From the NCBI RefSeq assembly GCF_003946275.1, contig NZ_RHNQ01000027.1:1-33647 (forward strand): a stretch of 33,647 bases of DNA, in the 5' to 3' direction. This stretch comes from Loigolactobacillus backii (lineage in GTDB: Bacteria > Bacillota > Bacilli > Lactobacillales > Lactobacillaceae). The notes under the pieces are model-generated. The model made no database searches. It was not told the origin of the DNA and worked only from the letters and a program-made list of their open reading frames with translations. Within the stretch, counting starts at the first letter, position 1. Each line of letters starts with the position of its first letter. Both the position numbers and the translations under genes were made by a program. Positions 10,556 to 33,454 of the stretch are shown here, piece by piece.

Positions 10556-10570
10556 TAAAAATCCCTCCAA

Positions 10571-11177
10571 ATATTAATCTACCCAAATTCCAACTTAATG
10601 AGATGTTATTCATTACGGGTCGTTTATATAGTGGACGGAAAACTTGAAATAAGCGGCTTAAATTTACTTGCTTCCGCAGCAATAAAGCACATTAGAAGCT
10701 TTCATTAAAATAAACTCATCAAATTAGCATATGAATCTAATCACAACTTACTTATACTAAATTAATAAAATCGTGTCAAGCCGGCTTTGCGGGCACTATA
10801 ATTAAGTATTAACGTTAAATACTTTAATATTATTCAACCTGAATAATTAGCAGCACCTGTAAGCAGTATAAACTCTTACTTATAATTTATATATTATGTT
10901 ATATTAACGATAATTAAATAAATAAAAAAGTCAAATATCAAAGAAATTTTATTAAAAATAGATATTTTTTATGTCAATTTTTAACCGCTATTTCACTATG
11001 TCATTTAATTTTTGCCGTCATTTGCAGGTTAAAATATAATCAAGATTGGGGTCCACATGATTTATTTAATGACTTTTATCAAAATTAAGGTGACTTTATA
11101 GTTCACTTGGGTGTGATTTCGAAAATGCTATGTTGTTTGAATGTAAGTAGCTATCTTTTGTAGAAAAGGGCGATTCT
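10571..11177. other. AT-rich divergent intergenic region
   Basis: A 607-bp gap between the adhesin and lplA with no gene seen. It contains the palindrome AAGCCGGCTT (10778-10787) and the inverted repeat AAGTATT-N7-AATACTT (10804-10824), which could be protein-binding sites. It also holds the lplA promoter at 11012-11040. A very AT-rich stretch at 10860-10990 could carry the adhesin promoter. TTGATA-N17-TTTAAT can be read there on the minus strand, but the long leader this implies makes the call weak. Confidence 0.5.
11012..11040 (+). promoter_or_regulatory. Promoter of lplA
   Basis: TTGCCG, a 17-bp spacer, and TATAAT. It leaves an untranslated leader of about 130 nt, in which AAGGTGA...TCACTTG (about 11087-11108) can fold into a hairpin. 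Confidence 0.7.
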
Positions 11178-18971: not shown

Positions 18972-19907
18972 ATGACAAAGAAAATGAAACGTGTTATCAA
19001 GCTATTTTTACCCCTCGTGGCCTTAGTGGTTACCCTCAGTGGCTGTAGTTTGCCTGGTTTAGGTGGTACCTCTGATGATACGGTGCGGATTGCTGCTCAA
19101 AATACAACGGAGCAACAAATTATGGCGGCAATTATTCAAGGGATGATTAAACACTATTCTAATTTGGATACAACCGTTATTAATAACCTTGGTTCAGCTA
19201 CCGTAAGCTTTCAGGCTCAGAAAAATGATGAGGCCGATTTAACTGCGATTCGATTTAACGGGACAGATTACCAGACAATTTTGAAAAAATCGGCAACTAA
19301 AGATCCTAAGGTAATCGCGGCTACTGTAAAACGAGATTTTCAAAAGAAGTACCACATGACTTATTTCCCAAGTTATGGTTTTGCGGATACTTATCAATTT
19401 ATGGTGACGCAAAAGTACGCTAAAGAGCATAATCTAAATACTGTTAGTGATCTGAAAAAGACTGCACCACAAATGCAAGTTGGGATTGATCAGATTTGGA
19501 TGAATCGTAAGGCTGATGGTTACGGTGCTTTCCAAAAGACGTATGGCTTCAGTTTTGGTCATGTCTACCCCATGCAAATTGGGTTGGTTTACAATGCTTT
19601 GGCCAGCAATAAGATGGATGCTATCTTAGGTTATTCTACGGATGGTCGAATTGGTAGCTATAATTTGAAGTTGTTAAAAGACGATAAACAATTTTTCCCA
19701 CCCTATCAAGCTAGTGTAGTTGCCAACGATAAAGCGTTGAAGCGAAATCCACAATTACGACCAATTTTAAAACGCTTAGACGGTAAAATTCCATTGAAGA
19801 CAATGCAACGTTTAAATTACCAAGTTGATAATAATTTACAGGAACCAGCAACAGTGGCCAATAAGTTCTTGAAAGACAACAATTATTTTGAAGGGGGACA
19901 AAATTAA
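18972..19907 (+). CDS. opuCC: Osmoprotectant ABC transporter, substrate-binding lipoprotein
   Basis: Extracellular solute receptor of the importer, 311 residues. A basic N-terminus and hydrophobic stretch end in the lipobox LSGC with the lipid-modified cysteine at C25. The mature part is an OpuAC-type two-lobed binding fold (VRIAAQNTTEQQIMAAIIQG at the start). Aromatic residues for quaternary amines cannot be placed with certainty by eye. ATG one base after the opuCB stop, with GGAGGG upstream; overlaps opuCD by one base. Confidence 0.92.
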   Translation: MTKKMKRVIKLFLPLVALVVTLSGCSLPGLGGTSDDTVRIAAQNTTEQQIMAAIIQGMIKHYSNLDTTVINNLGSATVSFQAQKNDEADLTAIRFNGTDYQTILKKSATKDPKVIAATVKRDFQKKYHMTYFPSYGFADTYQFMVTQKYAKEHNLNTVSDLKKTAPQMQVGIDQIWMNRKADGYGAFQKTYGFSFGHVYPMQIGLVYNALASNKMDAILGYSTDGRIGSYNLKLLKDDKQFFPPYQASVVANDKALKRNPQLRPILKRLDGKIPLKTMQRLNYQVDNNLQEPATVANKFLKDNNYFEGGQN

Positions 19908-20569
19908 TGCAAAATATGAATATTGTTCAACAACTATTCTATTACTTTGCCCATAACGGTATGTACGTCCTCAGTCAATTTGATCGGCACTTTTTAATCT
20001 CAATTTATGGGGTTGTTTTTGCGGCGATTGTTGGTATTCCAATTGGTATTTTTATTGCTAAACACCGTAAGCTCAGTGGTTGGGTGATTGGAATTGCAAA
20101 CGTGATTCAAACCGTGCCGTCGTTAGCAATGTTGTCACTCATAATGTTGGCACTTGGTCTTGGGGTTAATACGGTTATCGTGACGGTCTTCCTCTACGCA
20201 TTATTGCCAATTATCAAAAATACTTATACGGGCATGTTAAACGTCAACGCCGATGTTTTAGATGCCGGTAAAGGTATGGGCATGACTCGGGTTCAGATTT
20301 TACGATTAATTGAAATACCGCTATCTTTATCAGTTATCATGGCTGGCATTCGAAATGCGTTAGTATTAGCCATTGGGATTACGGCCATTGGTTCCTTCGT
20401 TGGTGCTGGTGGGTTAGGTGATATTATTATTCGTGGAACGAACGCTACAAATGGTGGTGCAATTATTTTAGCAGGTGCGTTACCAACTGCATTAATGGCG
20501 ATTATTTCCGATAGTGTGCTTGGATTTTTTGAACGGAAATTTGATCCAACAAACAGAACTAGTCAATAA
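19907..20569 (+). CDS. opuCD: Osmoprotectant ABC transporter, permease
   Basis: Second membrane subunit, 220 residues. It is homologous to opuCB, with the loop MGMTRVQILRLIEIPLSLSV and GAGGLGDIIIRG. The start overlaps the last base of opuCC, with AAGGGGG upstream. Last gene of the operon. There is no terminator right after the stop: the next strong hairpins are the perfect inverted repeat at 20635-20673 (no T run) and the true terminator at 20956-20988. Confidence 0.92.
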   Translation: MQNMNIVQQLFYYFAHNGMYVLSQFDRHFLISIYGVVFAAIVGIPIGIFIAKHRKLSGWVIGIANVIQTVPSLAMLSLIMLALGLGVNTVIVTVFLYALLPIIKNTYTGMLNVNADVLDAGKGMGMTRVQILRLIEIPLSLSVIMAGIRNALVLAIGITAIGSFVGAGGLGDIIIRGTNATNGGAIILAGALPTALMAIISDSVLGFFERKFDPTNRTSQ

Positions 20570-20593
20570 ATGAATGAATGTTTAAATTTAAGG

Positions 20594-20622
20594 GAGTGGT
20601 CCAAAAGTCGGTTTTGGGTTTA
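20594..20622 (-). repeat. Composite dispersed repeat, copy R5 (module B, reversed)
   Basis: AGTGGTCCAAAAGTCGGTTT followed by TGGGTTTA is the reverse complement of module B at 142-169, with three differences. It lies 25 bp after the opuCD stop codon. Confidence 0.7.
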
Positions 20623-20634
20623 TTGCGTGACGTA

Positions 20635-20673
20635 AGCCAATCCAATAACCGTACTATGGTTATTGGATTGGCT
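20635..20673. repeat. Perfect 16-bp inverted repeat
   Basis: AGCCAATCCAATAACC (20635-20650) and its exact complement (20658-20673) around a 7-nt loop. No T run follows on either strand, so it is not a standard terminator. It sits between copy R5 and the inverted-repeat element. Confidence 0.85.
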
Positions 20674-20679
20674 GTAGTC

Positions 20680-20893
20680 GTGTTTGAAAAAACAGATTCC
20701 TGCGGTTGCCATGTTTCAACTTGGCGGTTTTTGCCGTAGTTGAATGGACAACGGATGAAGCATCTAGATTATTAGCGTTTTGTGCTAATAATCCTCAATT
20801 GCGGAATAGTAGCTACAACAGCCAAATCACCTTTTTCAAAGGTAATTCGTCTGTTCAGGCTAATCCTCAGAATCTAATCGTTTTTTCAAACAC
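20680..20893 (-). repeat. ~215-bp inverted-repeat element, copy 3
   Basis: Bounded by perfect 14-bp inverted repeats, GTGTTTGAAAAAAC (20680-20693) and GTTTTTTCAAACAC (20880-20893); a GATT follows each end inward. Reversed, its interior matches copy 1 at several blocks (GTTGTCCATTC, GAAACATGGCA, TCCGCAAT) in the same order. A 76-codon reading frame through it has no ribosome binding site and is probably chance. It is flanked by R5 on one side and R6 on the other. Confidence 0.8.
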
Positions 20894-20904
20894 TTCCGTT
20901 AGGC

Positions 20905-20945
20905 ACGTGAACCCAAACTTTTGGCGCACGTTCTAGAGTAATGAT
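20905..20945 (-). repeat. Composite dispersed repeat, copy R6 (module A, reversed)
   Basis: Reverse complement reads GATCATTACTCTAGAACGTG and CGCCAAAAGTTTGGG, nearly the same as 88-121. It runs into the terminator hairpin at 20956, as copy R2 does at 4528-4609. Confidence 0.7.
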
Positions 20946-20955
20946 CGAAAATAGT

Positions 20956-20988
20956 AAGAGGCCAGGACAAAAGTCCTGGCCTCTTTTT
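20956..20988 (+). terminator. Terminator upstream of the pur operon
   Basis: AAGAGGCCAGGAC, loop AAAA, GTCCTGGCCTCTT, then more T. A perfect 13-bp stem. It would end opuC transcription before the pur promoter. Confidence 0.88.
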
Positions 20989-21061
20989 GGGTTCTATATA
21001 AAGTTGTTTTGATACTGAAAGTAGATTAGCTAATATAAAAAAATAAATTTTTCATTATCCT

Positions 21062-21072
21062 AATGTTCGGAT
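21062..21072 (-). promoter_or_regulatory. PurR box (upstream, reversed)
   Basis: AATGTTCGGAT is the reverse complement of ATCCGAACATT, a full match to the PurBox core CCGAACAT known in Lactococcus and Bacillus. It lies in the loop and flanks of a small palindrome, CCTAAT...ATTAGG. Confidence 0.65.
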
Positions 21073-21141
21073 TAGGGCCTAATTCAACGTCTAACTAGGT
21101 GAATTTTAATTGCTTTATAATAAATAAAATTATAATTTTTA

Positions 21142-21156
21142 AAATACGAACATTTT
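21142..21156 (+). promoter_or_regulatory. PurR box next to the pur promoter
   Basis: AAATACGAACATTTT matches the PurBox core CGAACAT and flanks. It ends four bases before the -35 hexamer. With the reversed box about 80 bp upstream it probably binds PurR, which senses PRPP. Activation is the mode known in Lactococcus, repression in Bacillus; the sequence does not decide. Confidence 0.7.
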
Positions 21157-21160
21157 AGCG

Positions 21161-21188
21161 TTGACAAAGTAGAAATGTTAAGTATTAT
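21161..21188 (+). promoter_or_regulatory. Promoter of the purine operon
   Basis: TTGACA, a 16-bp spacer and TATTAT, about 50 bp before purE. There is no room for, and no sign of, a guanine riboswitch in the short leader. Confidence 0.75.
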
Positions 21189-21237
21189 TTGAACTATAAA
21201 CCTGTTAGGTCTTTTAGTTAGAAAGGAAGATAAACTA

Positions 21238-21726
21238 ATGGCGAATAATATTGGTGTTGTTATGGGATCAATTTCGGACTGGTCAACGATGAAATTGACC
21301 TGCGATTGGTTGGATAAGTTTGGAATTGGCTACGAAAAACACGTTATTTCTGCTCATCGAATGCCAAATGAACTGTACACTTACGGTAGTAATGCCGTAA
21401 CTAAAGGCCTAAAGGTTATCGTTGCTGGAGCAGGTGGTGCCGCCCACTTACCAGGTATGTTAGCGGCAAATACAACATTACCGGTAATTGGAGTACCAAT
21501 AAAAACACGAACATTAAATGGCGTTGACTCTTTATTATCAATTGTTCAGATGCCATTTGGTGCTCCAGTTGCAACTGTCAGTATTGGTGAAGCAGGGGCC
21601 AAAAATGCGGCCTTGTTAGCCATACAAATTTTAGCGATCAATGATTCCAAGCTAACGGCCAAATTGATGGCGTTTAAGGAGCAGCAGCGGCAGGAGGCGA
21701 TTACCAGTGAGCAACAATTCAACTAA
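21238..21726 (+). CDS. purE: N5-carboxyaminoimidazole ribonucleotide mutase
   Basis: Converts N5-CAIR, the PurK product, to CAIR in de novo purine synthesis. It has 162 residues, normal for class I PurE. Signature motifs are VMGSISDWSTM (9-19), the catalytic histidine region ISAHRMPNE, and GAGGAAHLPGM. ATG with GAAAGGAAG upstream. First gene of an eleven-gene operon in the order E-K-C-S-Q-L-F-M-N-H-D, with tight spacing or overlaps. Its 3' end overlaps purK by 20 bases. Confidence 0.96.
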   Translation: MANNIGVVMGSISDWSTMKLTCDWLDKFGIGYEKHVISAHRMPNELYTYGSNAVTKGLKVIVAGAGGAAHLPGMLAANTTLPVIGVPIKTRTLNGVDSLLSIVQMPFGAPVATVSIGEAGAKNAALLAIQILAINDSKLTAKLMAFKEQQRQEAITSEQQFN

Positions 21727-22840
21727 AGTAATTTTACCGCCAGCTACGATCGGAATTGTTGGTGGCGGTCAATTAGGCCAGATGATGGCTTTAAGTGCCA
21801 AGGCAATGGGCTATAAAGTTGGTGTCCTCGATCCAACGTCCCACGCACCAGCCGGTCAGGTAGCCGATTTTCAAATTAAGGCCGCTTACACTGATACAGC
21901 GGCCTTAATGGAATTGGCACGGCGCAGTGCGGTCCTAACCTATGAATTTGAAAATGTTGATGAGCAGGCCTTGATTAAGGCCCAGACGGTAACTAAATTG
22001 CCACAAGGAACTGAATTATTACATATCACCGGTGATCGATTAAATGAAAATAATTTTCTACGTTCAGCTGGCCTGCCGGTAACTGATTTTGTCGCTGTTA
22101 CTGATAGCGTAAGTTTGACGGCCGCTATTAAGCAAATCGGTTATCCGGCAATTCTAAAAACAGCCGCCGGTGGCTACGATGGTCACGGCCAACTTGATCT
22201 TAATGTAGCCGCGGATTTACCTGCTGCTGCAAAGCTTTATCAACAAGCCGACTGTATTCTTGAAGCGCGGCAAAAGTTTATTGGTGAAGCAGCCATGATG
22301 GTCACGCGAACTGCGGCCGGTAAAATTATTACTTTTCCACTGGTAGAAGATTTCCATAAGCACCATATTTTACACACTACGATTGCTCCAGCACGATTTG
22401 GTGGGACCATCGAGGAACTGGCCAAGGCGGCCGCGGTTAAGATTGCGGCCGAATTAAATTTACGTGGCGTTCTAGGCATCGAATTTTTCATTCTTGATGA
22501 GCAACATCTGTTAATTAATGAGTTGGCGCCACGCCCACATAATTCTGGGCACTACAGTATTGAAGCTTGTAATATTTCTCAGTTTGAGGCCCATATTCGT
22601 AGCATTTGTGGGCTACCTATTCCGGCTATTAAACAAGAAAAAACGGCCGTAATGACTAACCTTTTGGGGTCTGATTTGACCAAGGCCCGGCAACTTTTGG
22701 TCGATCACCCTGAATGGCACTTTCACGATTACGGTAAAGATGCGGTTCGGCCACAACGAAAATTAGGGCACATCACTGTTTTAGGCGATAACGTTGAACA
22801 ATTGTTGGCAAGTACGCAGGCATTAAAGGGAGACGATTAA
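21707..22840 (+). CDS. purK: N5-carboxyaminoimidazole ribonucleotide synthase
   Basis: ATP-grasp enzyme that carboxylates AIR with bicarbonate and ATP to give N5-CAIR for PurE. It has 377 residues. The N-terminal dinucleotide-like loop is IGIVGGGQLGQMMA. ATP-grasp residues include KTAAGGYDGHGQ, and the C-terminal signature is LINELAPRPHNSGHY. The start is a GTG nine bases after AGGAGG, placed inside purE; translational coupling is likely. Confidence 0.95.
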   Translation: MSNNSTKVILPPATIGIVGGGQLGQMMALSAKAMGYKVGVLDPTSHAPAGQVADFQIKAAYTDTAALMELARRSAVLTYEFENVDEQALIKAQTVTKLPQGTELLHITGDRLNENNFLRSAGLPVTDFVAVTDSVSLTAAIKQIGYPAILKTAAGGYDGHGQLDLNVAADLPAAAKLYQQADCILEARQKFIGEAAMMVTRTAAGKIITFPLVEDFHKHHILHTTIAPARFGGTIEELAKAAAVKIAAELNLRGVLGIEFFILDEQHLLINELAPRPHNSGHYSIEACNISQFEAHIRSICGLPIPAIKQEKTAVMTNLLGSDLTKARQLLVDHPEWHFHDYGKDAVRPQRKLGHITVLGDNVEQLLASTQALKGDD

Positions 22841-22841
22841 T

Positions 22842-23573
22842 ATGGTAGATTACGAGAAAAGGGAATTATTGTATCGCGGTAAGGCCAAGGAAATGTTTGC
22901 CACGAACGTTGCGGATGTTGTTTGGGTTCATTACATGGATCAAGTTACGGCTTTAAATGGTAAAAAGAAAGTCCAAATGACTGATAAAGGGACAACGAAT
23001 AACCAAATTTCCAGTTTGATTTTCTCTGATCTAACGGCAAATGGTATCCCCAATGACTTCATCAAACAAATTGACGCCAATAATCAACTAGTCAAAAAAG
23101 TACAAATAATTCCGCTAGAAGTAGTCATTCGCAATTTTTCTTCTGGCAGTTTCGAACGCAAATTTGCGGTTGATCATTTGCTGAAATTTGAACAACCGGT
23201 CAAAGAATTCTTCTATAAAAGTGATAAATTAGATGATCCATTTATTAATGATTCGCAAATTAAGGCACTAAATATTGCGACACAGCAACAATTAGACCAA
23301 ATGCGCGACTTGGCACTTAAAATTAACCAGCGTTTACGAACTATCTTTGCCGCAATGCAAATTGAGTTAATTGATTTTAAAGTTGAATTTGGTTTAGATC
23401 AAACTGGTGAAATCATTTTAGCGGATGAAATTTCGCCAGATAGTTGTCGTTTAGTCGATCAAAAAACCAAAGAATCTTTAGACAAAGACGTTTTTCGTAA
23501 AGGGCTAGGTGAATTGGTTCCCGTTTATAAAACCGTTTTGCAACGTCTGCAGAAAGTGGAGGGCCATAACTAA
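22842..23573 (+). CDS. purC: SAICAR synthetase
   Basis: Phosphoribosylaminoimidazole-succinocarboxamide synthase joins aspartate to CAIR with ATP. It has 243 residues, normal for the bacterial form. Motifs: LLYRGKAKEMF (substrate loop), EVVIRNFSSGSF, and LADEISPDSCRL near residues 193-204. One base after the purK stop, with AAGGGAG upstream. The next enzyme, adenylosuccinate lyase (purB), is not in this operon; in Bacillus it sits between purK and purC. Confidence 0.96.
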   Translation: MVDYEKRELLYRGKAKEMFATNVADVVWVHYMDQVTALNGKKKVQMTDKGTTNNQISSLIFSDLTANGIPNDFIKQIDANNQLVKKVQIIPLEVVIRNFSSGSFERKFAVDHLLKFEQPVKEFFYKSDKLDDPFINDSQIKALNIATQQQLDQMRDLALKINQRLRTIFAAMQIELIDFKVEFGLDQTGEIILADEISPDSCRLVDQKTKESLDKDVFRKGLGELVPVYKTVLQRLQKVEGHN

Positions 23574-23836
23574 TGTATTTAGCGAAAATCCACGTTAATT
23601 ATAAGCGTTCAATTTTGAATCCTGAAGCACAAGCAATCCAAACGGCCTTGTTGCGTTTAGGTTATCAGGATGTTGCCTCCGTCAAGTTGGGTAAGTACTT
23701 TGAATTGAAACTGACCAATTCGCAATCCAAGGAACAGGCTGCAAAGGAAGTAGACGAAATTTGCGATCGACTACTCGCTAATGTGAACATGGAAAGTTAC
23801 CACTATCAACTTGAAGAATTGGTGGTGGCAAAATGA
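23573..23836 (+). CDS. purS: FGAM synthase subunit PurS
   Basis: Small structural subunit of the three-part formylglycinamidine ribonucleotide synthase (PurS-PurQ-PurL), which helps ammonia pass from PurQ to PurL. It has 87 residues, usual size. The pattern [20 protein letters not shown] is typical. ATG overlaps the last base of purC, and its end overlaps purQ by four bases. Confidence 0.94.
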
Positions 23837-24516
23837 AATTCGCAGTTGTTGCCTTCCCAGGTTCCAATTGCGAAATGGATTTAGTCTACGCAATCGAGGA
23901 CGTGGTTAAGGAGCAAGTAGAGTTAGTTCCGTCTACGGCCACCGATTTGAGTGACTACGGCGCCGTGTTACTTCCTGGTGGGTTTTCTTACGGTGATTAT
24001 TTACGTAGTGGGGCAATTGCGCAGTTGGCGCCGATTATGCCGGCTGTTAAAAGATTTGCGGCCGCCGGGAAACCTGTTTTGGGTATTTGCAACGGTTTCC
24101 AGATACTAACTGAGGCCAGGTTACTACCTGGTAGTTTACAACGGAATCAAGAATCTAAGTTTGTTTGTAAGGTCGCCGACTTAGTCGTTACAAATGATCA
24201 AACGCGGTTTACAACTGATTATCAGGCACAACAAACAATTCAACTACCGATTGCGCACGGTGATGGTAATTATTATTGTGATCCGATCACTTTGGCGGAA
24301 TTAAGAAAAAATAACCAGATTATTTTCACCTATCAAAATAATCCCAACGGCAGTGTTGCTGCTATTGCCGGAATTTCCAATCGACAGGGCAATGTTTTGG
24401 GTATGATGCCCCATCCAGAGCGTGCGGTAGAAGCAATTCTTGGTTCAACTTCAGGCCGCGAACTTTTCAGTTCGTTAGTCAATTCGGTAAGAAAGCGTGG
24501 GCTAATTCATGAGTGA
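23833..24516 (+). CDS. purQ: FGAM synthase, glutaminase subunit PurQ
   Basis: Class I glutamine amidotransferase that supplies ammonia to PurL. It has 227 residues. The nucleophile is the cysteine in GICNGFQIL, and the His-Glu pair is in [10 protein letters not shown]. The N-terminus [14 protein letters not shown] is characteristic. Overlaps purS by four bases and purL by eight. Confidence 0.96.
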
Positions 24517-26727
24517 AACAGCAGCACTTACACCAGAAACAATTCAGACCACGAAGTATTATCAGGGTTTAGGTCTGACGGATGCTGAATATCAATTAAT
24601 TACGACGAAAATTTTACAACGCTTACCAACTTACACTGAAATTGGTTTGTATTCTGGAATGTGGAGTGAACACTGCTCTTATAAAAATTCAAAACCAGTT
24701 TTGAAGAAATTTTGGACTAAGGCTAAACAAGTGGTTGAAGGACCTGGTGAAGGCGCAGGAATTATTGATATTGGTGACAATCAGGGAATTGTATTCAAGG
24801 CCGAAAGTCACAATCATCCTTCGGCAGTTGAACCATTTCAGGGTGCAACTACTGGCGTTGGTGGTATTTTACGGGATATTTTTTCAATGGGGGCTCGGCC
24901 AATTGCTTTGTTGGATAGTTTGCGTTTCAGTGAACCTAAAACCGCTCACGATAAATATCTGATCAACCAGATTGTCGCCGGAATCGCTGCCTACGGAAAT
25001 TGTATTGGGGTACCAACGGTTGGGGGTGATACAGCCTTTGATGCGACCTACGCCACCAATCCCTTAGTAAACGTTATGTGTGTGGGCTTAATGGATTTAA
25101 CTAATCGTGAAAAAGGCCAAGCAACCGGCGTAGGTAACAGTATTATCTACGTTGGCGCAAAAACTGGTCGTGACGGGATTAATGGGGCTTCCTTTGCTTC
25201 AGCTCAATTTGATTCTAAACATAAAAGCCAACGCTCCGCCGTTCAAGTGGGTGATCCGTTTACGGAAAAATTGGTGATGGAAGCTTGTTTGGACGTTATT
25301 CATAAGCATCAGGATACATTAGTTGGTATTCAAGACATGGGTGCTGCCGGACTAGTTTCTTCATCCGCCGAAATGGCTTCCAAGGCCGGTAGTGGTATGA
25401 CCTTAAACCTAGATTTAGTCCCACAACGTGAAGCTAATATGACTGCTTTTGAATTAATGTTGTCTGAATCACAGGAACGGATGCTGCTTTGTATCAAGGC
25501 CGGTAGTGAAAATGAAATTTTAGATCTATTTACTGACTACGGACTTACTGCTGCCGTTATTGGGCAGGTCACAACGGGCCATCAATACCAATTGAGTCAC
25601 CACGGCCAAATAGTAGCGGATGTACCAGTGGACTCACTGGCAACCGCGGCGCCAGTTTACCACCGTGAAAAGGCCGTTCCGGAGCATATTTTACGGCAAG
25701 CAACCACTCAGTTTTCACCAAAGATTACAGAACCAACACAAATTTTAAAGCAAATGCTCCAACAACTGACGATTGCGTCTAAAAAAATGATTTACGAAAC
25801 TTATGATACTCAGGTTCAAACGAATACAGTTGTTCGGCCAGGTTCTGATGCAGCGGTGGTGCGAATTCGCCACACCGACAAGGCCTTGGCAATGACCACC
25901 GATGTTAACGGGCGTTACCTTTACTTAGATCCCTATGTGGGCGGAGAAATCGCGGTTGCTGAGGCTGCACGTAATATTGTGGCGACTGGTGGCGTTCCGT
26001 TGGGCATTACTGATTGTTTAAATTTTGGTAATCCAACAAAACCTGATCAATTCTATGAATTAGATGAAGCAGTTATGGGGATGACGGCCGCCTGTAAAGT
26101 GTTTAACACGCCGGTTATTTCCGGGAATGTTTCGTTAAATAATGAATTTAATGATGTTGCTATTTACCCAACGCCGATGGTTGGCATGGTTGGTCTAATC
26201 AAAGGATTAAACCGGATTACGACGCAGAATTTTAAACAGGTCAACGATAAGGTTTACGTTGTTGGTCAAACTGGTAATGATTTTAATGGTACGGAAATTC
26301 AAAATTACTGACTGGTAAAATTGGTGGAAAACTTTTTTCTTTCAATTTAGCTGAAGAACAGCGAATTCAGCAATTAATTCTACGCGCAAACCGGCAAGGT
26401 TTAATTGCTAGTGCTCACGATATTTCTGAGGGTGGTCTGATTGTGGCGGTTGCTGAAAGCTGTTTTGGTAAAGATTTAGGTGTGGCACTGAACAGCGCAT
26501 TAACAACAGCGCAGTTTTTTGCTGAGACGCAAGGTCGGTTTCTGATTTCGGTTAAACCAGAAAACCAATTGATTTTTGAACAATTAATGGGTCGTGATGC
26601 AACACTTCTTGGAAAGGTAACTAACCAGCAGCGACTTTTAGTTGCAGCAATTGATGGTGAATTTAAGCTGGCACTTCCTGAAGCCAAAAGATTATGGGAA
26701 GGAGCTTTGGCATGCAGTCTGAAGTGA
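24509..26727 (+). pseudogene. purL: FGAM synthase, large subunit PurL, with a one-base frameshift
   Basis: Catalytic subunit that makes FGAM from FGAR, ATP and ammonia. The first frame runs 600 codons to a stop at 26309-26311; it holds the N-terminal [13 protein letters not shown], the ATP and metal region [17 protein letters not shown], and the second AIRS-like domain. The remaining about 139 residues continue in another frame ([28 protein letters not shown]). One extra A in the run AAAA at about 26302-26305 restores [12 protein letters not shown] and a 739-residue protein, the normal small-PurL size. So this is a single-base deletion or a read error. If real, C-terminal conserved residues are lost and purine synthesis should fail. 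The 3' end overlaps purF. Confidence 0.9.
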
Positions 26728-28172
26728 AGAGTCTTAATGAAGAGTGTGGCGTTTTTGGTATCTGGGGAACGCCGGATGCGGCTAAATTAACCTATTTTGG
26801 CCTGTTTGCACTACAACATCGTGGTCAAGAAGGTGCGGGCATTACCGTTAATGAGCAAGGAAGGCTACGGACTGAACGTGGCCTAGGTTTGTTAACGGAT
26901 GTGTTTTCGTCACAGCAAAAGCTTAACGATTTGCGCGGGACTGCCGCCATTGGCCATGTCCGTTACTCGACTGCAGGGGCCAACACATTGGAAAATGTTC
27001 AACCCTTGCCGTTTAACTTTAGTGATACACAGTTTGCCCTGGCACACAATGGTAATTTGACTAACGCAATTTCTTTAAGAAAAGACCTTGAGGCAAGTGG
27101 GGCAATTTTTCATTCTAGTTCGGATAGTGAAATTTTAATGCACTTAATTCGCTGTAGTAAGGCGGCTACTTTAGATGAACAGGTCAAGGCTGCCTTACGT
27201 AAAATTAAAGGTGGTTTTGCCTACTTGTTACTTACGAAGGATCGGTTATACGCAGCACTTGATCCCAATGGTTTTCGGCCGTTAGTCGTTGGTCAATTAG
27301 CCAATGGCGCCTATGTTGTTTGCAGCGAAACTTGTGCGTTGAACGTTGTGGGTGCCACGTTTAAGTGTGATGTTCATCCTGGTGAGCTCTTAATTATTGA
27401 CGCAGCTGGTTTGAGAATTGAACGGTACACTAATAAAACGAAGCTGGCCATTTGTTCAATGGAGTTCATTTATTTTGCTCGTCCTGATTCGGAAATCTAC
27501 GGAGTCAATGTTCATTCCGCCCGTAAGCGAATGGGTAAACTGTTAGCTCGCGAGCACCCAGCAGATGCGGATATGGTTATCGGCGTCCCGAACTCATCCC
27601 TTTCAGCGGCCAGTGGTTACTCTGAGGAAAGTGGCCTGCCTTATGAAATTGGTTTGGTTAAGAATCAATATTCGGCCCGAACTTTCATTGAACCAACGCA
27701 AGAATTACGCGAACAGGGCGTTTTTTTAAAGTTATCCGCGGTTAAAGGAGTTGTTGCTGGAAAACGAGTTGTGCTGGTAGATGATTCGATTGTTCGGGGA
27801 ACAACTAGCCGCCGAATTGTGAAATTATTAAAGGATGCCGGCGCCAAGGAAGTTCATTTGCGAATTGCATCACCACCGTTACGTTTTCCCTGTTTTTACG
27901 GAATTGATATTCAAAGTGCGCGTGAATTAATTGCCGCCAATCAAAGTGTTGCCGAAATGGCCGTCACCTTTGGTTGTGACTCTTTAGCCTTCTTAAGTAC
28001 CGCCAATTTAATCAAGGCAATTAATTTAAAGTCTGCTGCGCCCTATCATGGTTTGTGCGTTGCCTATTTTAACGGTGATTATCCAACACCACTTTACGAT
28101 TACCAAGAAGAATATGATGCGGAACAACAACAATTGGCACATGAACGAGGTGAATTCAATGGATGCGTATAA
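26712..28172 (+). CDS. purF: Amidophosphoribosyltransferase
   Basis: First committed step of purine synthesis: PRPP plus glutamine to phosphoribosylamine. The ATG at 26712 has AAGGAG seven bases upstream; an upstream in-frame start at 26694 overlaps that site. The short propeptide [11 protein letters not shown] is followed by the N-terminal nucleophile C12 (CGVFGIWG). The glutaminase domain runs to about residue 240. The phosphoribosyltransferase domain carries the PRPP motif [16 protein letters not shown]. The C-terminal region reads YHGLCVAYF where, from memory, the Bacillus enzyme has a CxxC pair for an iron-sulfur cluster; only one of those cysteines appears here. It overlaps the frameshifted purL and purM, with which it may be coupled. 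Confidence 0.95.
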
Positions 28173-29172
28173 AAAAGCCGGTGTCGATATTGCGGCAGGC
28201 AATCAGGTTGTCACCGATTTAAAAAAATTATCTGGCAATCAGGCACTAGGTTCATTCGGCGGACTTTTTCCATTAGACTTGGCTGGGTACAAACGGCCGG
28301 TTTTGGTTTCCGGTGCGGATGGGGTGGTGACTAAATTATTAGTTGCTCAAAAGGCCCAAGAACACGCCACGATTGGGATTGATTTAGTTGCAATGTGTGT
28401 TAATGATATTGTGGCCCAGGGTGCGCAACCACTATTTTTCTTAGACTACTTGGGTGTTGGTCATTTGCAGCGGGCACAAACCCAGGCGATTTTAAAGGGA
28501 ATTGTTGCTGGTTGCCAAGACGCACAAGTTCAGTTAGTTGGTGGCGAAACCGCCGAGATGCCCGACATGTACCACGCTGGCCATTATGATCTAGCTGGTT
28601 TTGCGGTGGGAATCGCCGAGGCGCAACAATTGATGCAGCCTGAAAAAATGGCATTAGGTGATATTTTGCTAGGCTTGCCGGCCCAGGGGCTTCATTCAAA
28701 TGGATTTAGTCTCGTTCGGCAGATTTTATTTAAGCAACATCACTTTGAACTGAGTGCCCAATTACCGCACTGCAAAATGGATTTAGCCCACGAATTATTA
28801 CGGCCCACTAAAATTTACGTTAAGGCGTTATTACCCTTAGTTCAACAAAACTTAGTCAGTGGCATTGCCCACATTACTGGGGGTGGTTTGTTGGAAAACG
28901 TTGCGCGTATTTTACCGACTGACCTTGATGCAGTGATTGATTGCTCAACCTGGACACTTCCTGGAATTATGCAGGACTTAGCTAGTTTAGGCCAGCTTTC
29001 ATTTACCGATCTTGCCAGCACTTTTAACTTAGGAATTGGAATGGTGTTAGCCGTTCACCCTAAAAATTTGGAACAAGTTAAGCAGGTACTAGCGGAACGA
29101 CAACAGCCAGTTTTACAGATTGGGCAAGTTACCACTGGGCAGCAAAAGGTTATCTTACAGGAGCAAAAGTAA
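28159..29172 (+). CDS. purM: AIR synthetase (phosphoribosylformylglycinamidine cyclo-ligase)
   Basis: Closes the imidazole ring of FGAM to give AIR. It has 337 residues from the ATG at 28159 ([11 protein letters not shown]), preceded by GAGGTG. A longer reading frame upstream is only purF in another frame. Family motifs are [39 protein letters not shown] and [11 protein letters not shown]. Starts inside the last 14 bases of purF and abuts purN. Confidence 0.95.
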
Positions 29173-29760
29173 ATGGGACAAAAAGAAAAAAATATTGCAA
29201 TTTTTGCATCTGGTGAAGGCACTAATTTTACGGCTTTAGTAACGGCTTTTCGCCAGCAAAATTTGCCCTTAAAGGTTAAATTACTTATTTGTGACCACCC
29301 AGCAGTTAACGTCTTACGCCGAGCAGAAGAAGAAAAAGTCCCTAGTTTGATGGTTGATTTTAAAGCGTACCCAAACAAGGCGGTCGCTGAGCAGCAAATT
29401 ATTAAACAATTACAGGCCAGACAGATCGATTTTATTTTGTTAGCCGGATATATGCGGATTATTGGCCCAACCTTGCTTGCCGCCTACCCACATAAAATTA
29501 TCAATATTCATCCCGCCCTATTACCGCACTTTTCTGGGCGTCACGGAATTGAAGATGCTTTTGCTGCAGGCGTTACAACAACTGGGGTGACAATTCACTG
29601 GGTTGATTCTGGAATTGATACGGGTAAGATTATTGCCCAACGAATCGTTACGGTTTTACCCCAAGATGATCTTGCTTCATTAGCCAAACGAATTCACGCA
29701 ACTGAGCACCGGCTATACCCGCAAGTGGTTGAACAATTATTGAATGAAGGAGAGATTTAA
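29173..29760 (+). CDS. purN: Phosphoribosylglycinamide formyltransferase
   Basis: Transfers formyl from 10-formyl-tetrahydrofolate to GAR. It has 195 residues, usual length. N-terminus [16 protein letters not shown]. The catalytic set is visible in [12 protein letters not shown] (Asn, His) and [10 protein letters not shown] (Asp). Starts directly after the purM stop, with AGGAG nine bases upstream. Confidence 0.95.
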
Positions 29761-29761
29761 A

Positions 29762-31291
29762 TTGACGAAGAGAGCTCTTTTAAGTGTTTCGGATAAAACA
29801 GGTTTGGTGGATTTTGCTAAGCAGTTACAACAGTTAGGCTATGAATTAGTTTCAACTGGGGGCACTAAAAAAGTGCTAGAAGCGGCCGAAATCGTGGTTA
29901 CCGGCGTTGAAACCGTCACGGGCTTTCCGGAGATGCTAGATGGACGGGTAAAAACACTGCACCCCAACATTCACGCTGGTATTTTGGCCAAACGTGATAA
30001 CGCCAGCCACATGCAACAATTAAAAGAAGTACAGATTGTGCCAATTGACCTCGTTGTTGTTAACCTTTACCCATTTAAAGCAACAATTGAAAAACCAACA
30101 ACAACTCAGGCGCAGGCAATTGAACAAATTGATATCGGTGGACCATCAATGTTGCGAGCCGCGGCAAAAAACTTTGCTGGCGTTATCCCCGTCGTTGATC
30201 CGACCGATTACACTAAAGTCATTGCGGCTTTACAAGCAGGAGTTGTTGACCAGGATTTCCGTAAACAGTTAGCGGCCAAGGTTTTTCGCCACACTGCGGC
30301 CTACGATGCATTAATCGCCAATTACCTCACAACTGAAGAGTTTCCCCAACAACTGACGCTGACGTACGAAAAACAGCAGGCATTACGTTACGGTGAGAAC
30401 AGCCATCAAAAGGCCGCCTTTTATCAAAATGCTATTCCATCGGCCTATTCAGTGGTTACTAAGCAGCTTCACGGTAAAGAATTATCCTACAATAATATTA
30501 AAGACGCCGACGCAGCAATGAAAATGATTCGTGAATTTGAACAGCCGACCGTGGTTGCGATGAAGCACATGAATCCCTGTGGTGTTGGTGTTGCCGCTAC
30601 ATTGAGTGCGGCTTGGGATAAGGCCTATGAATCGGATACTATGTCGATTTTTGGCGGAATTATTGCAGTTAATCGTGAAGTAGACGCAGCAACTGCTAGC
30701 AAAATGCACGAACTCTTTTTGGAAATCATTATTGCGCCTTCATTTAGCGATGAAGCCTACGCTATTTTAGCCAAAAAGAAAAATGTTCGTTTACTGCAGG
30801 CCGATTTTAGTCGCAAGGACCAAGCCGATCAATTTGAAACTATTTCCGTTAGCGGTGGTCTTTTAATGCAAGAAGTTGATAAAAAGGTTGATACCCCAGC
30901 CGATTTCACGGTTGTTAGCAAAAAGCAACCAACTAAACAACAGTTGGCGGCCTTGGCCTTTGGACAACACATTGTGAAACACGTTAAAAGTAACGCCATT
31001 GTTGTGACCACGGACACGCAAACTTTAGGCATTGGTTCTGGGCAACCAAACCGAATTGATTCCACTAAAATTGCTGTTCAAAAGGCAATGTCTAAGGCTG
31101 GTTATGAAAACGCAATTATGGCCTCTGACGCCTTTTTCCCAATGGATGACTGTGTGGCATACGCTGCCAAACATGGTATAAAGGCGATTGTTCAGCCAGG
31201 TGGCAGTATTCGTGATCAAGATTCAATTGATATGGCCGATAAATGGGGAATTGTTTTAGTAACGACTGGCATTCGGCACTTTAGACATTAG
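29762..31291 (+). CDS. purH: Bifunctional AICAR transformylase/IMP cyclohydrolase
   Basis: Last two steps to IMP. It has 509 residues. The N-terminal cyclohydrolase domain (about 1-195) contains [25 protein letters not shown] and [16 protein letters not shown]. The transformylase domain contains [28 protein letters not shown], and ends in [19 protein letters not shown]. The start is taken as the TTG at 29762, nine bases after AAGGAG. An ATG at 29744 is immediately before that ribosome binding site and overlaps purN, so it is unlikely. One base after the purN stop. Confidence 0.95.
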
Positions 31292-31308
31292 TAAAGGCGG
31301 GGATGCAG

Positions 31309-32547
31309 ATGGCAAAGGTACTTGTGATTGGTTCGGGAGCGCGGGAACACGCAGTTTGTGTGGCCTTTCTAAAGAGTTCGCAGGTGACGGCGGTTTACTG
31401 TGCACCGGGCAATCCTGGAATGCAGCGGGATGGTATTAACTGTGTCAACATTGCAATGCTTGCCTTCGCCAATTTGGCACAGTTTGCAAAAACGCAGGCG
31501 ATTCATTTAACGTTTGTTGGGTCAGAAGAACCATTGGCCGCTGGGATTGTTGATTATTTTCAGACGCACCAATTAACTATCTTTGGTCCACACAAAGCCG
31601 CGGCTCAATTGGAAAGTTCAAAAAAGTTTGCGAAACAATTTATGCAGCAACAACAGATTCCAACGGCAAATTACCGTGCCTTTAATGATGAAGCACAGGC
31701 GTTAAGTTATGCGCAAGACCGTTCGCTGCCGTTAGTGGTTAAGGAAAATGGTTTGGCCGGTGGTAAAGGGGTAACAATTGTTAGGGCTAGTGCTGACCTT
31801 GCCGCGGTTATCCATGAGGGGTTACAACACGCCACCGAAATATTAATTGAGGATTATTTAAGCGGGGAAGAGTTTTCGTTAATGCTACTTGTCGGTGGCA
31901 CCCAAATGGTTCTCTTACCGCTTTCCCAGGACCATAAGAAACTTTGTGCAGGTGATGAAGGGCCCAACACTGGTGGTATGGGGGCGTACTCACCACTGCC
32001 GCAGATGACAAGCACAGTGTATCAGCAGGCATTAGCGCAAATTGTGCAACCAACGATGGCCGGTTTAGTAGCAAAAAAACTGACCTTTGCGGGGGTAATT
32101 TATATTGGCTGCGTGGTCACTGCTGAAGGGCCCAAAGTAATTGAATATAATTTACGGCTAGGTGATCCTGAAACCCAGGTCATTTTGCCGCAATTACGCA
32201 GTGATTTTTATCAATTAATTATGGCCTTAATTGCTGGTAGGACACCTCAGATTGAGTGGCAAAAATCAGAAACCTATTTAGGTGTGGTTGTTGCCGCACC
32301 AGGTTACCCGCACAAACCACAAGTGGGATTAATGTTGCCACCATTACCCCAAAATGGCTATTACGCAAATGTAACGGCTAAAGACGGCCAATTATATAAT
32401 GCGGGTGGCCGTATTTTTACATTAGTGGTGCACGGAAAAAATTTAGCAAGCGCCCAAGAAAAGGCCTACCACCAACTTGAACAGTTAAAGCTAGCTAAAT
32501 TTTATTACCGCAAAGATATCGGTTTTAAAGGTTTGGAAAATATTTGA
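31309..32547 (+). CDS. purD: Phosphoribosylamine-glycine ligase (GAR synthetase)
   Basis: ATP-grasp enzyme that joins glycine to phosphoribosylamine. About 412 residues. Signature: VLVIGSGAREHA at the N-terminus, ENGLAGGKGVTIV (ATP-binding), DHKKLCAGDEGPNTGGMGAY, and EYNLRLGDPETQ near residue 280. The ATG at 31309 is eight bases after AAGGCGG; the in-frame ATG at 31303 is two residues longer and less well spaced. Last gene of the operon. No strong terminator follows; a weak GCGCT-AATG-AGCGG hairpin with a T run lies at about 32592-32615. Confidence 0.95.
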   Translation: MAKVLVIGSGAREHAVCVAFLKSSQVTAVYCAPGNPGMQRDGINCVNIAMLAFANLAQFAKTQAIHLTFVGSEEPLAAGIVDYFQTHQLTIFGPHKAAAQLESSKKFAKQFMQQQQIPTANYRAFNDEAQALSYAQDRSLPLVVKENGLAGGKGVTIVRASADLAAVIHEGLQHATEILIEDYLSGEEFSLMLLVGGTQMVLLPLSQDHKKLCAGDEGPNTGGMGAYSPLPQMTSTVYQQALAQIVQPTMAGLVAKKLTFAGVIYIGCVVTAEGPKVIEYNLRLGDPETQVILPQLRSDFYQLIMALIAGRTPQIEWQKSETYLGVVVAAPGYPHKPQVGLMLPPLPQNGYYANVTAKDGQLYNAGGRIFTLVVHGKNLASAQEKAYHQLEQLKLAKFYYRKDIGFKGLENI

Positions 32548-32664
32548 AAAGGTGCTCCGAATTTACTTGGCAAATAAGCAACAGAGTCTAAGCGCTAATG
32601 AGCGGCCAATTTTTTAGTTATTATTAGGCGGCAAACTTTAATGAAACTTGTGGTAGCATATTAG

Positions 32665-32693
32665 TTGTATCCGTTTCCAATGCGTGCTATATT
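32665..32693 (+). promoter_or_regulatory. Promoter of the structured RNA
   Basis: TTGTAT, a 17-bp spacer and TATATT, with TGC before the -10 (extended -10). It would start transcription at about 32700, right at the first base-paired position of the RNA below. Confidence 0.7.
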
Positions 32694-32699
32694 ACAGTT

Positions 32700-32980
32700 A
32701 AGGAAGACGGAGAGACTAATTAACGGTGATGATTATCATCACTTCAAGGCGCCAACGTGAGATTGGTAGGTTAGTAACGATCAGCGTTGTGCTCAAGTTA
32801 GCTCTGGCGAATAGGAATAACAAACGTATCGTACTACTTGAGGTAGTGTAACGGCGCTAGTTGCAGAACTAGGTTGTTCCGAAAGTTTTGTGTAGTAAGG
32901 ATTACACTATAAAATTGGTCTCGGAAGCAGTCTTCCGCAAGTATCAATCCGCGAATCGATCTGGTTCGCGGTTCTTTTTG
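32700..32980 (+). ncRNA. Orphan structured RNA with intrinsic terminator
   Basis: A ~280-nt non-coding stretch with dense pairing. The 5' end GGAAGAC (32702-32708) and GAGACTAATT (32712-32721) pairs with AATTGGTCTC (32913-32922) and GTCTTCC (32930-32936), closing the molecule. Inside are GTGATGA/TCATCAC (32726-32742), CGCCA/TGGCG (32750-32754, 32805-32809) with inner TGAG/CTCA and AACG/CGTT, ACTAC/GTAGT (32833-32847), CTAGTT/AACTAG (32857-32872) and GTGTA/TACAC (32890-32907). A terminator follows, CCGCGAA/TTCGCGG (32949-32971) plus TTCTTTTT. It lacks the T-box sequence and the conserved cores of the purine, TPP, SAM, FMN, lysine and cobalamin riboswitches. It could be a stand-alone RNA or a leader of the next gene, whose ribosome binding site follows the terminator by about 10 nt. 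Confidence 0.75.
32949..32979 (+). terminator. Terminator of the structured RNA
   Basis: Perfect 7-bp stem CCGCGAA/TTCGCGG with a 9-nt loop, then TTCTTTTT. It lies just upstream of the ribosome binding site of the next gene. Confidence 0.85.
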
Positions 32981-33004
32981 TCACTTGGATGAGGAGGATG
33001 AGTT

Positions 33005-33454
33005 ATGCCAAAATTGCCTGAAGGAATCTGGAATCAGCAACCAAAAGAAAAAACATTTATTTATCACGGTTATAAGGCCACAATTCGCCAAAATAAATTA
33101 GGTGCCATGTACGGCTACGTCACGATTCCGGAAACCAATGGTCACTACGAAAAATCGCGGTTGGCCGACTGGGCTAATTTTGACGTTCATGGTGGGGTGA
33201 CATACGTTAATTACAGCAAGGGCAATTTGATTGTAGGCTTTGATGCAGAACACATGAATGACTTGGTTCCGGCCAAGCTGGAAGCACAACAGCAAATGAT
33301 TGAAAATGAATACCGAAATGCCGTTGAATTACAAAAAGAATTTGGTTCAGGAGAGCAACCTGATGCTACTTTATTCCAGCTTTCATACAAGGATGCTGGC
33401 TTTATTAAAAAAGAACTCAAACATTTGATTGACCAAATGTTTGTTTTGGAATAG
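33005..33454 (+). CDS. Conserved protein of unknown function, 149 residues
   Basis: ATG preceded by GAGGAGG, a strong ribosome binding site. No signal peptide and no membrane segment, so cytoplasmic. The N-terminal half (YHGYKATIRQNKLGAMYGYV, IPE, DVHGGVTYVNY, LIVGFDAEHMNDL) has the pattern of a small domain seen in many phage-encoded and bacterial hypothetical proteins, recalled as HGY...GYV...VHGGLTY...GFDCAH; this is recognition by eye. The C-terminal part (about 90-149) is helical and charged. No function is known to me. The gene follows the structured RNA and its terminator and is itself followed by an IS end 48 bp on. Its expression may depend on read-through of that terminator. Confidence 0.8.
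   Translation: MPKLPEGIWNQQPKEKTFIYHGYKATIRQNKLGAMYGYVTIPETNGHYEKSRLADWANFDVHGGVTYVNYSKGNLIVGFDAEHMNDLVPAKLEAQQQMIENEYRNAVELQKEFGSGEQPDATLFQLSYKDAGFIKKELKHLIDQMFVLE

What the first reader, a model, noticed from the sequence alone, without database searches (positions are those of the whole stretch)
32700..33454. Orphan multi-stem RNA with its own promoter, followed by an unknown small protein
The 450-bp gap after purD holds an extended -10 promoter, an RNA of about 240 nt closed by a 17-bp long-range stem with at least five internal hairpins, a terminator, and then a strong ribosome binding site for a 149-residue protein. The layout (structured leader, terminator, ribosome binding site) is that of a riboswitch or attenuator, or of an independent RNA. 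I cannot match it to a known class. The downstream protein has a phage-like domain pattern, so the pair may be a mobile or regulatory unit.
Basis: partly seen in the sequence, partly recalled or inferred. Interest (0 to 1): 0.75.

Follow-up and report, generated by a model that had tools for sequence, protein, structure and literature searches.

The report
Genus-specific structured RNA gene
The gap after purD holds a free-standing gene for a folded, apparently non-coding RNA of about 280 letters, found so far only in Loigolactobacillus lactic acid bacteria, whose promoter carries a likely site for the sugar-response repressor CcpA, so it is probably a regulatory RNA made when preferred sugar runs out.

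Summary
Window 32700-32979 is an RNA gene of its own: promoter, multi-branched RNA with a long-range closing stem, terminator. It is in 6 of 8 held Loigolactobacillus genomes, in two genomic settings; model searches of overlapping sets of 397 family, 395 order and 398 class genomes gave no convincing relative outside the genus. No Rfam family fits; 6S RNA lies elsewhere. Ten pairs in four internal helices have compensatory changes, and consensus folding beats column shuffles (z about -9). The closing stem is invariant, so covariation neither supports nor refutes it. The 149-residue protein is in only 2 of the 8 genomes, so the RNA is not its riboswitch or attenuator. New here: an exact cre core (CcpA operator pattern) overlaps the -35 box of the RNA promoter in 6 of 6 genomes, 10 bp apart in two lineages, and is the only exact match in the window. 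Best reading: a CcpA-repressed, genus-specific regulatory RNA, working like RsaI of S. aureus. Expression, CcpA binding and targets are untested.

The parts
32666..32679 (.). cre-like operator (TGGAAACGGATACA on the - strand) overlapping the -35 box
   Evidence: only exact TGNAANCGNWNNCW match in the window; an exact match lies in the RNA promoter of 6 of 6 genomes
32665..32670 (+). -35 box TTGTAT
   Evidence: read; 17-nt spacer to the -10; not listed by the scan
32685..32693 (+). extended -10 TGC TATATT
   Evidence: TGNTATATT invariant in six genomes
32700..32979 (+). RNA gene, about 280 nt from inferred start to the end of the T run
   Evidence: both ends are inferred, not measured
32702..32708 (+). 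closing stem P1, 5' strand GGAAGAC
   Evidence: invariant but for one pair-keeping change in L. iwatensis
32930..32936 (+). closing stem P1, 3' strand GUCUUCC (CUUCCG can also pair with CGGAAG just upstream)
32712..32720 (+). closing stem P2, 5' strand GAGACUAAU
   Evidence: invariant in 6 of 6
32914..32922 (+). closing stem P2, 3' strand AUUGGUCUC
   Evidence: invariant in 6 of 6
32725..32743 (+). hairpin P3
   Evidence: three pairs with changes on both sides
32748..32793 (+). hairpin P4
   Evidence: two pairs with changes on both sides, every cell with letters on both sides paired
32814..32880 (+). helix P5 enclosing P6 (32825-32856) and P7 (32857-32872)
   Evidence: P6 two and P7 three pairs with changes on both sides; P5 has none in that count (83.3% paired on an alignment that ignores an indel), but its strands are complementary in both lineages: GAUAAC/GUUAUC and GAAUAAC/GUUGUUC or GUUAUUC
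32890..32907 (+). hairpin P8
   Evidence: complementary arms in six sequences, read by eye; columns are misaligned for G000 and L. iwatensis, so its three both-sides pairs are left out of my count
32949..32979 (+). intrinsic terminator
   Evidence: 10-pair stem and T run; three stem pairs with changes on both sides in relatives
33005..33454 (+). 149-residue protein of PHROG 2164 type; a neighbour, not part of the RNA unit

Best explanation
An independent regulatory RNA gene specific to Loigolactobacillus. Shown by sequence: conserved promoter, conserved multi-branched fold, conserved terminator, independence from the downstream gene, and a cre-like operator over the -35 box. The step after CcpA is the least certain.
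For: RNA in 6 of 8 genomes of the genus; two settings with promoter and terminator kept. Pairs with changes on both sides: 13 of 70, 10 of them outside P8; 0 of 500 shuffles reach the 13 or the covariation score 0.243 (shuffled mean 0.154); slides of 1-3 columns score at most 0.096. Column-shuffle z -9.2, SCI 0.83. RNA more conserved than its flanks. No reading frame kept across the six. Exact cre core in 6 of 6 RNA promoters and nowhere else in these six loci of 2.5-3.3 kb; the only one in the window; 45 in the 2.57-Mb genome, i.e. about 0.001 expected per 55 bp; 16 and 19 of 20000 letter shuffles of the promoter block hold one. In G000 and L. iwatensis it lies 10 bp nearer the RNA than in the other four, yet overlaps the -35 box in both layouts. 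For 6S RNA of lactic acid bacteria a cre over the -35 box is read as repressing (PMC8414754, passages).
Against: No expression data. The closing stem shows no covariation. In one search one of five measures goes the other way: 27 further pair types against 30.4 in shuffles (491 of 500 as high). The counts are made on an alignment fitted to the structure, from two groups of close relatives, so independent changes are few. Single-sequence minimum-energy folds of G003, G004 and G005 depart from the consensus in the interior. The cre was noticed by eye in G002-G005 and tested afterwards; in G000 and L. iwatensis it is exact on the - strand only (one mismatch on the + strand). One match per window is what chance gives (1.47 expected): the weight rests on position and conservation. 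Other LacI-family repressors use similar sites (recalled). No target is known, and two genus members lack the RNA.
Confidence: 0.62

Rival explanations
1. A standalone structured RNA whose main job is structural or protein-binding (as thought for large orphan RNAs such as OLE or ROOL, recalled), not base-pairing; the cre only sets when it is made.
For: Multi-branched fold, long closing stem and invariant segments in junctions and loops (such as AAGUUAG, GUAUCGU, ACGGCGCU, CGAAAG) look more like a compact folded RNA than a short pairing sRNA.
Against: No protein partner known; found in one genus only; no Rfam similarity to such RNAs.
Confidence: 0.25
2. A strand-exchange switch: the 5' strand GAGACUAAU pairs early with AAGUUAG (plus UC, or CUCU in G000 and L. 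iwatensis) and later with AUUGGUCUC, while CUUCCG can pair with the 5' end or with the adjacent CGGAAG; the double duty would explain why the closing stem does not vary.
For: In 5' partial transcripts the early pairing has probability 0.68-0.98 in six sequences; CGGAAG/CUUCCG is complementary in 6 of 6; the early helix is extended by different bases in the two lineages.
Against: The closed fold is favoured by 5.2-7.3 kcal/mol, P1 probability 0.985-0.997. The early pairing fails its control: 64 to 152 of 500 shuffles give as strong a partner, and in G002 the best partner lies elsewhere. Several other chance complementarities of 5-6 pairs are also kept in all six.
Confidence: 0.1
3. Riboswitch or attenuator leader of the 149-residue protein.
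For: Layout in the window: structured RNA, terminator, ribosome binding site, ORF.
Against: The protein is not beside the RNA in four of six genomes; another gene or an inserted group II intron follows there. An antiterminator pairing was looked for by eye only, without result; it was not searched systematically.
Confidence: 0.03

Closest known systems
RsaI of Staphylococcus aureus (CcpA-repressed sRNA)
   Same: Standalone RNA; repressed by CcpA at high glucose, derepressed when glucose is short (passages of PMC9598941 and PMC9266662). Here the CcpA link is a prediction.
   Different: No match to any Rfam family; longer and multi-branched with a closing stem (RsaI is shorter, recalled); no target known.
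6S RNA (SsrS) of lactic acid bacteria
   Same: RNA gene whose promoter has a cre at the -35 box in about a third of lactic acid bacteria (PMC8414754, passages).
   Different: The genome's 6S RNA lies elsewhere (G000:C86:5528-5718, 62.9 bits), and its locus L009 holds no exact cre core; this RNA is multi-branched, not a rod, and does not match RF00013.
Large orphan RNAs (raiA, OLE, ROOL, GOLLD; recalled)
   Same: Large, structured, independent of a protein gene.
   Different: No match to those families at E up to 5; found here in one genus only.

Membership tests
Any Rfam 15 family | score over the family's gathering cut-off | tested here: not met
   0 matches in the window. At E up to 5 the RNA region gave one chance match (ACEA_U3, 12.8 bits, cut-off 55); isrK matches of 21.3 and 18.2 bits (cut-off 50) touch the 3' end of the G004 and G003 copies
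6S RNA | match to RF00013; rod with central bubble | tested here: not met
   6S found elsewhere at 62.9 bits; no RF00013 match here; multi-branched consensus
Riboswitch or attenuator | conserved link with a downstream gene | tested here: not met
   downstream gene differs between lineages
Riboswitch or attenuator | ligand or signal alters termination or translation | not testable with these tools
   needs experiment
Type III toxin-antitoxin | tandem repeats in the RNA | tested here: not met
   none in 32600-33010 at score 30 or more
Type III toxin-antitoxin | toxin of a known family downstream | tested here: not met
   no Pfam, NCBIfam or PADLOC match at E up to 1
CcpA-controlled sRNA (works like) | conserved cre in the promoter | tested here: met
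   exact cre core in 6 of 6
CcpA-controlled sRNA (works like) | CcpA binding and glucose repression | not testable with these tools
   needs experiment
CcpA-controlled sRNA (works like) | mRNA targets | not tested
   no target search was made; the genome was not available as a file

The most novel reading that the evidence does not exclude
A new genus-specific RNA family under carbon catabolite control that works as a strand-exchange switch: its closing stem is frozen in evolution because each half has two alternative partners, so that the RNA folds early into one state and is locked into the closed state only when complete or when a partner binds.
Probability: 0.1. Interest if true: 0.65.

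Novelty: new member of a known kind. Interest (0 to 1): 0.45.

Why it matters
If true, it is an undescribed structured RNA family confined, as far as searched, to one genus of lactic acid bacteria. It comes with a testable rule for when it is made (CcpA control), a natural comparison (two species of the genus lack it at the same gene junction) and a fold backed by compensatory changes in its internal helices. It would add an RNA layer to sugar control in fermenting bacteria.

Tried and rejected
Riboswitch or attenuator, 6S RNA and type III toxin-antitoxin: see the membership test. Small peptide: the longest closed frame in the window's RNA (41 codons, GTG, 32726-32851) is shared only by L. iwatensis; at the same place G003, G002, G005 and G004 have an ATG frame of 3, 3, 7 and 24 codons; a GTG frame of 34-36 codons or more, open at the end of the stretch, is alike in G003, G005 and G004 but not in the other three. 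Retron or other mobile RNA: I saw no reverse transcriptase or transposase beside the window's copy (judged by eye); the reverse transcriptase near the G005 copy belongs to a group II intron inserted behind the terminator.

Wider homologues: a pattern scan of genome contigs gave 6 stretches, four of them Loigolactobacillus and two Oscillospiraceae that the model does not match; G005 was not among them although its letters fit. Viral contigs gave 1 stretch, not matched by the model. Plasmids (searched with the window's copy) and phages (searched with the G005 copy): none. Three weak model matches in the order search (E 0.17 to 0.535) were taken as chance; only the best, L051, was examined: 13.7 bits, less than a short inverted repeat in the same locus (14.6). 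The two others were not examined. The large-group searches scored about 5 candidates per genome with stricter filters, so diverged relatives could be missed. The early-pairing idea failed its shuffle control.

Full report
What is there. The 457-bp gap between purD (31303-32547; GARS domains) and the ORF at 33005 holds a promoter, an RNA that folds at -92.3 kcal/mol (z -4.10, 0 of 200 shuffles as stable), a terminator and a ribosome binding site. The simple promoter scan does not list this promoter (0 found, 3.1 expected); by my count it matches 8 of 12 bases, one below the cut-off.

Relatives. A DNA search of 100 related genomes found the RNA in 6, each of the window's genus, at 98% identity (G007) and 74-76% (G002-G005). 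A covariance model of the six found the same 6 among 397 family genomes; among 395 order genomes it found G000 and three matches at E 0.17-0.535, among 398 class genomes G000 alone. These sets overlap and were scored with stricter filters. The two other held genomes of the genus, G001 and G006, have no match.

Setting. In G002, G003, G004 and G005 the RNA lies behind an ABC-transporter permease gene (BPD_transp_1; osmoprotectant type by my reading) and before a methyladenine glycosylase gene; in G005 a group II intron with its reverse transcriptase stands between RNA and glycosylase gene, starting at the terminator's T run. In G001 and G006 the two genes are direct neighbours, and the model with filters off scores at most 8.8 bits on those loci. 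In the window the permease gene with the nearest match (87%) is at 19904-20563; genes that I read as the pur operon follow (only purD was checked by Pfam) and the RNA comes after purD. In L. iwatensis permease and RNA are likewise about 12 kb apart on one contig. A tree of 8 concatenated permease and binding proteins needs two changes of presence; it is poorly resolved (1 of 5 inner branches starred) and fits loss in two lineages as well as two gains. The 149-residue protein is in G000 and L. iwatensis only (2 of 8); of 201 family genomes one more has a weak match (33% over 55 residues). The RNA is therefore a unit of its own.

Fold. Consensus of six: P1 and P2 close the RNA; P3, P4, P5 (with P6 and P7) and P8 lie inside; the terminator follows. 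Consensus energy is -66.0 against -27.3 +/- 4.2 in 200 column shuffles that keep gap pattern and number of different letters per column. On the model-fitted alignment 94.5% of cells pair (90.2% in shuffles), 13 of 70 pairs have changes on both sides (6.1 in shuffles, 0 of 500 as high), and sliding by 1 to 3 columns drops pairing to 32-48%; against this, further pair types are 27 where shuffles give 30.4 (491 of 500 as high). Three of the 13 are in P8, where two rows are misaligned, so I count 10, in P3, P4, P6 and P7. The alignment leans towards the structure and the rows are two close groups. P1 and P2 are invariant apart from one pair-keeping C to U in L. iwatensis and loose inner pairs. Single-sequence minimum-energy folds of G000, L. 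iwatensis and G002 agree with the consensus; those of G003, G004 and G005 keep the closing stem but differ in the interior.

Not coding. No frame is kept across the six.

Selection. Window against L. iwatensis: RNA 232/238, terminator 44/44, promoter 35/39, ORF 413/450, purD 1084/1240, intergenic stretch before the promoter 76/106.

Promoter and cre. All six have TGNTATATT with a -35-like box 17 nt upstream. In G002-G005 the -35 TTGCAA overlaps the end of TGTAATCGCTTGCA, identical in the four; I noticed this by eye and then tested the pattern. In G000 and L. iwatensis TGTATCCGTTTCCA (exact on the - strand as TGGAAACGGATACA, one mismatch on the + strand) starts in the -35 box, 10 bp nearer the RNA. 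I searched a 14-base core of the published motif WTGNAANCGNWNNCWW (PMC9598941, passage); by eye the G000 site fits all 16 bases and the other four 15. It is the only exact core match in the window, where chance gives 1.47, and one of 45 in the genome (the pattern read backwards gives 124); the six loci hold no other. Of 20000 single-letter shuffles of the 55-bp block 16 (G000) and 19 (G003) hold one. For 6S RNA of lactic acid bacteria cre sites at the -35 box occur in about a third of species and are read as repressing (PMC8414754, passages); the 6S locus of this genome has no exact core match.

Mechanism. I take CcpA repression as likely (about 0.7) and a trans-acting regulatory role as the best guess (about 0.5). 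RsaI of S. aureus is the closest working model: repressed by CcpA, derepressed at low glucose, represses translation of target mRNAs (passages of PMC9266662 and PMC9598941). There is no sequence relation to it. A switch in which the 5' strand of P2 first pairs with AAGUUAG shows in partial folds of six sequences (0.68-0.98), but 13-30% of shuffles give as strong a partner and the closed fold wins by 5-7 kcal/mol.

Print. In the held library no paper has both Loigolactobacillus and small RNA; two have Lactobacillus coryniformis and noncoding RNA, unrelated by title (listing); none has Lactobacillaceae with structured noncoding RNA and motif. Subscription papers and supplements were not searched, so 'undescribed' is limited to that.

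Verdict. A real RNA gene of narrow spread, not in Rfam; a new member of a known kind (standalone bacterial regulatory RNA). Interest 0.45.

Noticed in passing
L004:1794-3265: In G005 a group II intron with a reverse transcriptase starts directly behind the T run of this RNA's terminator, a usual landing place of group IIC introns (recalled).
   Followed up: partly
window 20570-32547: Genes read as the pur operon lie between the transporter permease and the RNA, whereas in four relatives permease and RNA are adjacent: a rearrangement beside the RNA.
   Followed up: partly
window 33005-33454: 149-residue protein of PHROG 2164 (unknown function, E 7.2e-17), in 2 of 8 genomes of the genus; no Pfam, NCBIfam or PADLOC match.
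   Followed up: partly
window 4613-10573, - strand: Open frame of 1986 codons; its start (KMYKAGKRWLVAG) looks like the signal of a large surface protein (recalled motif, not tested).
   Followed up: no
G000 genome: The cre core pattern has 45 exact matches against 124 for the same pattern read backwards, as if such sites were avoided elsewhere.
   Followed up: no
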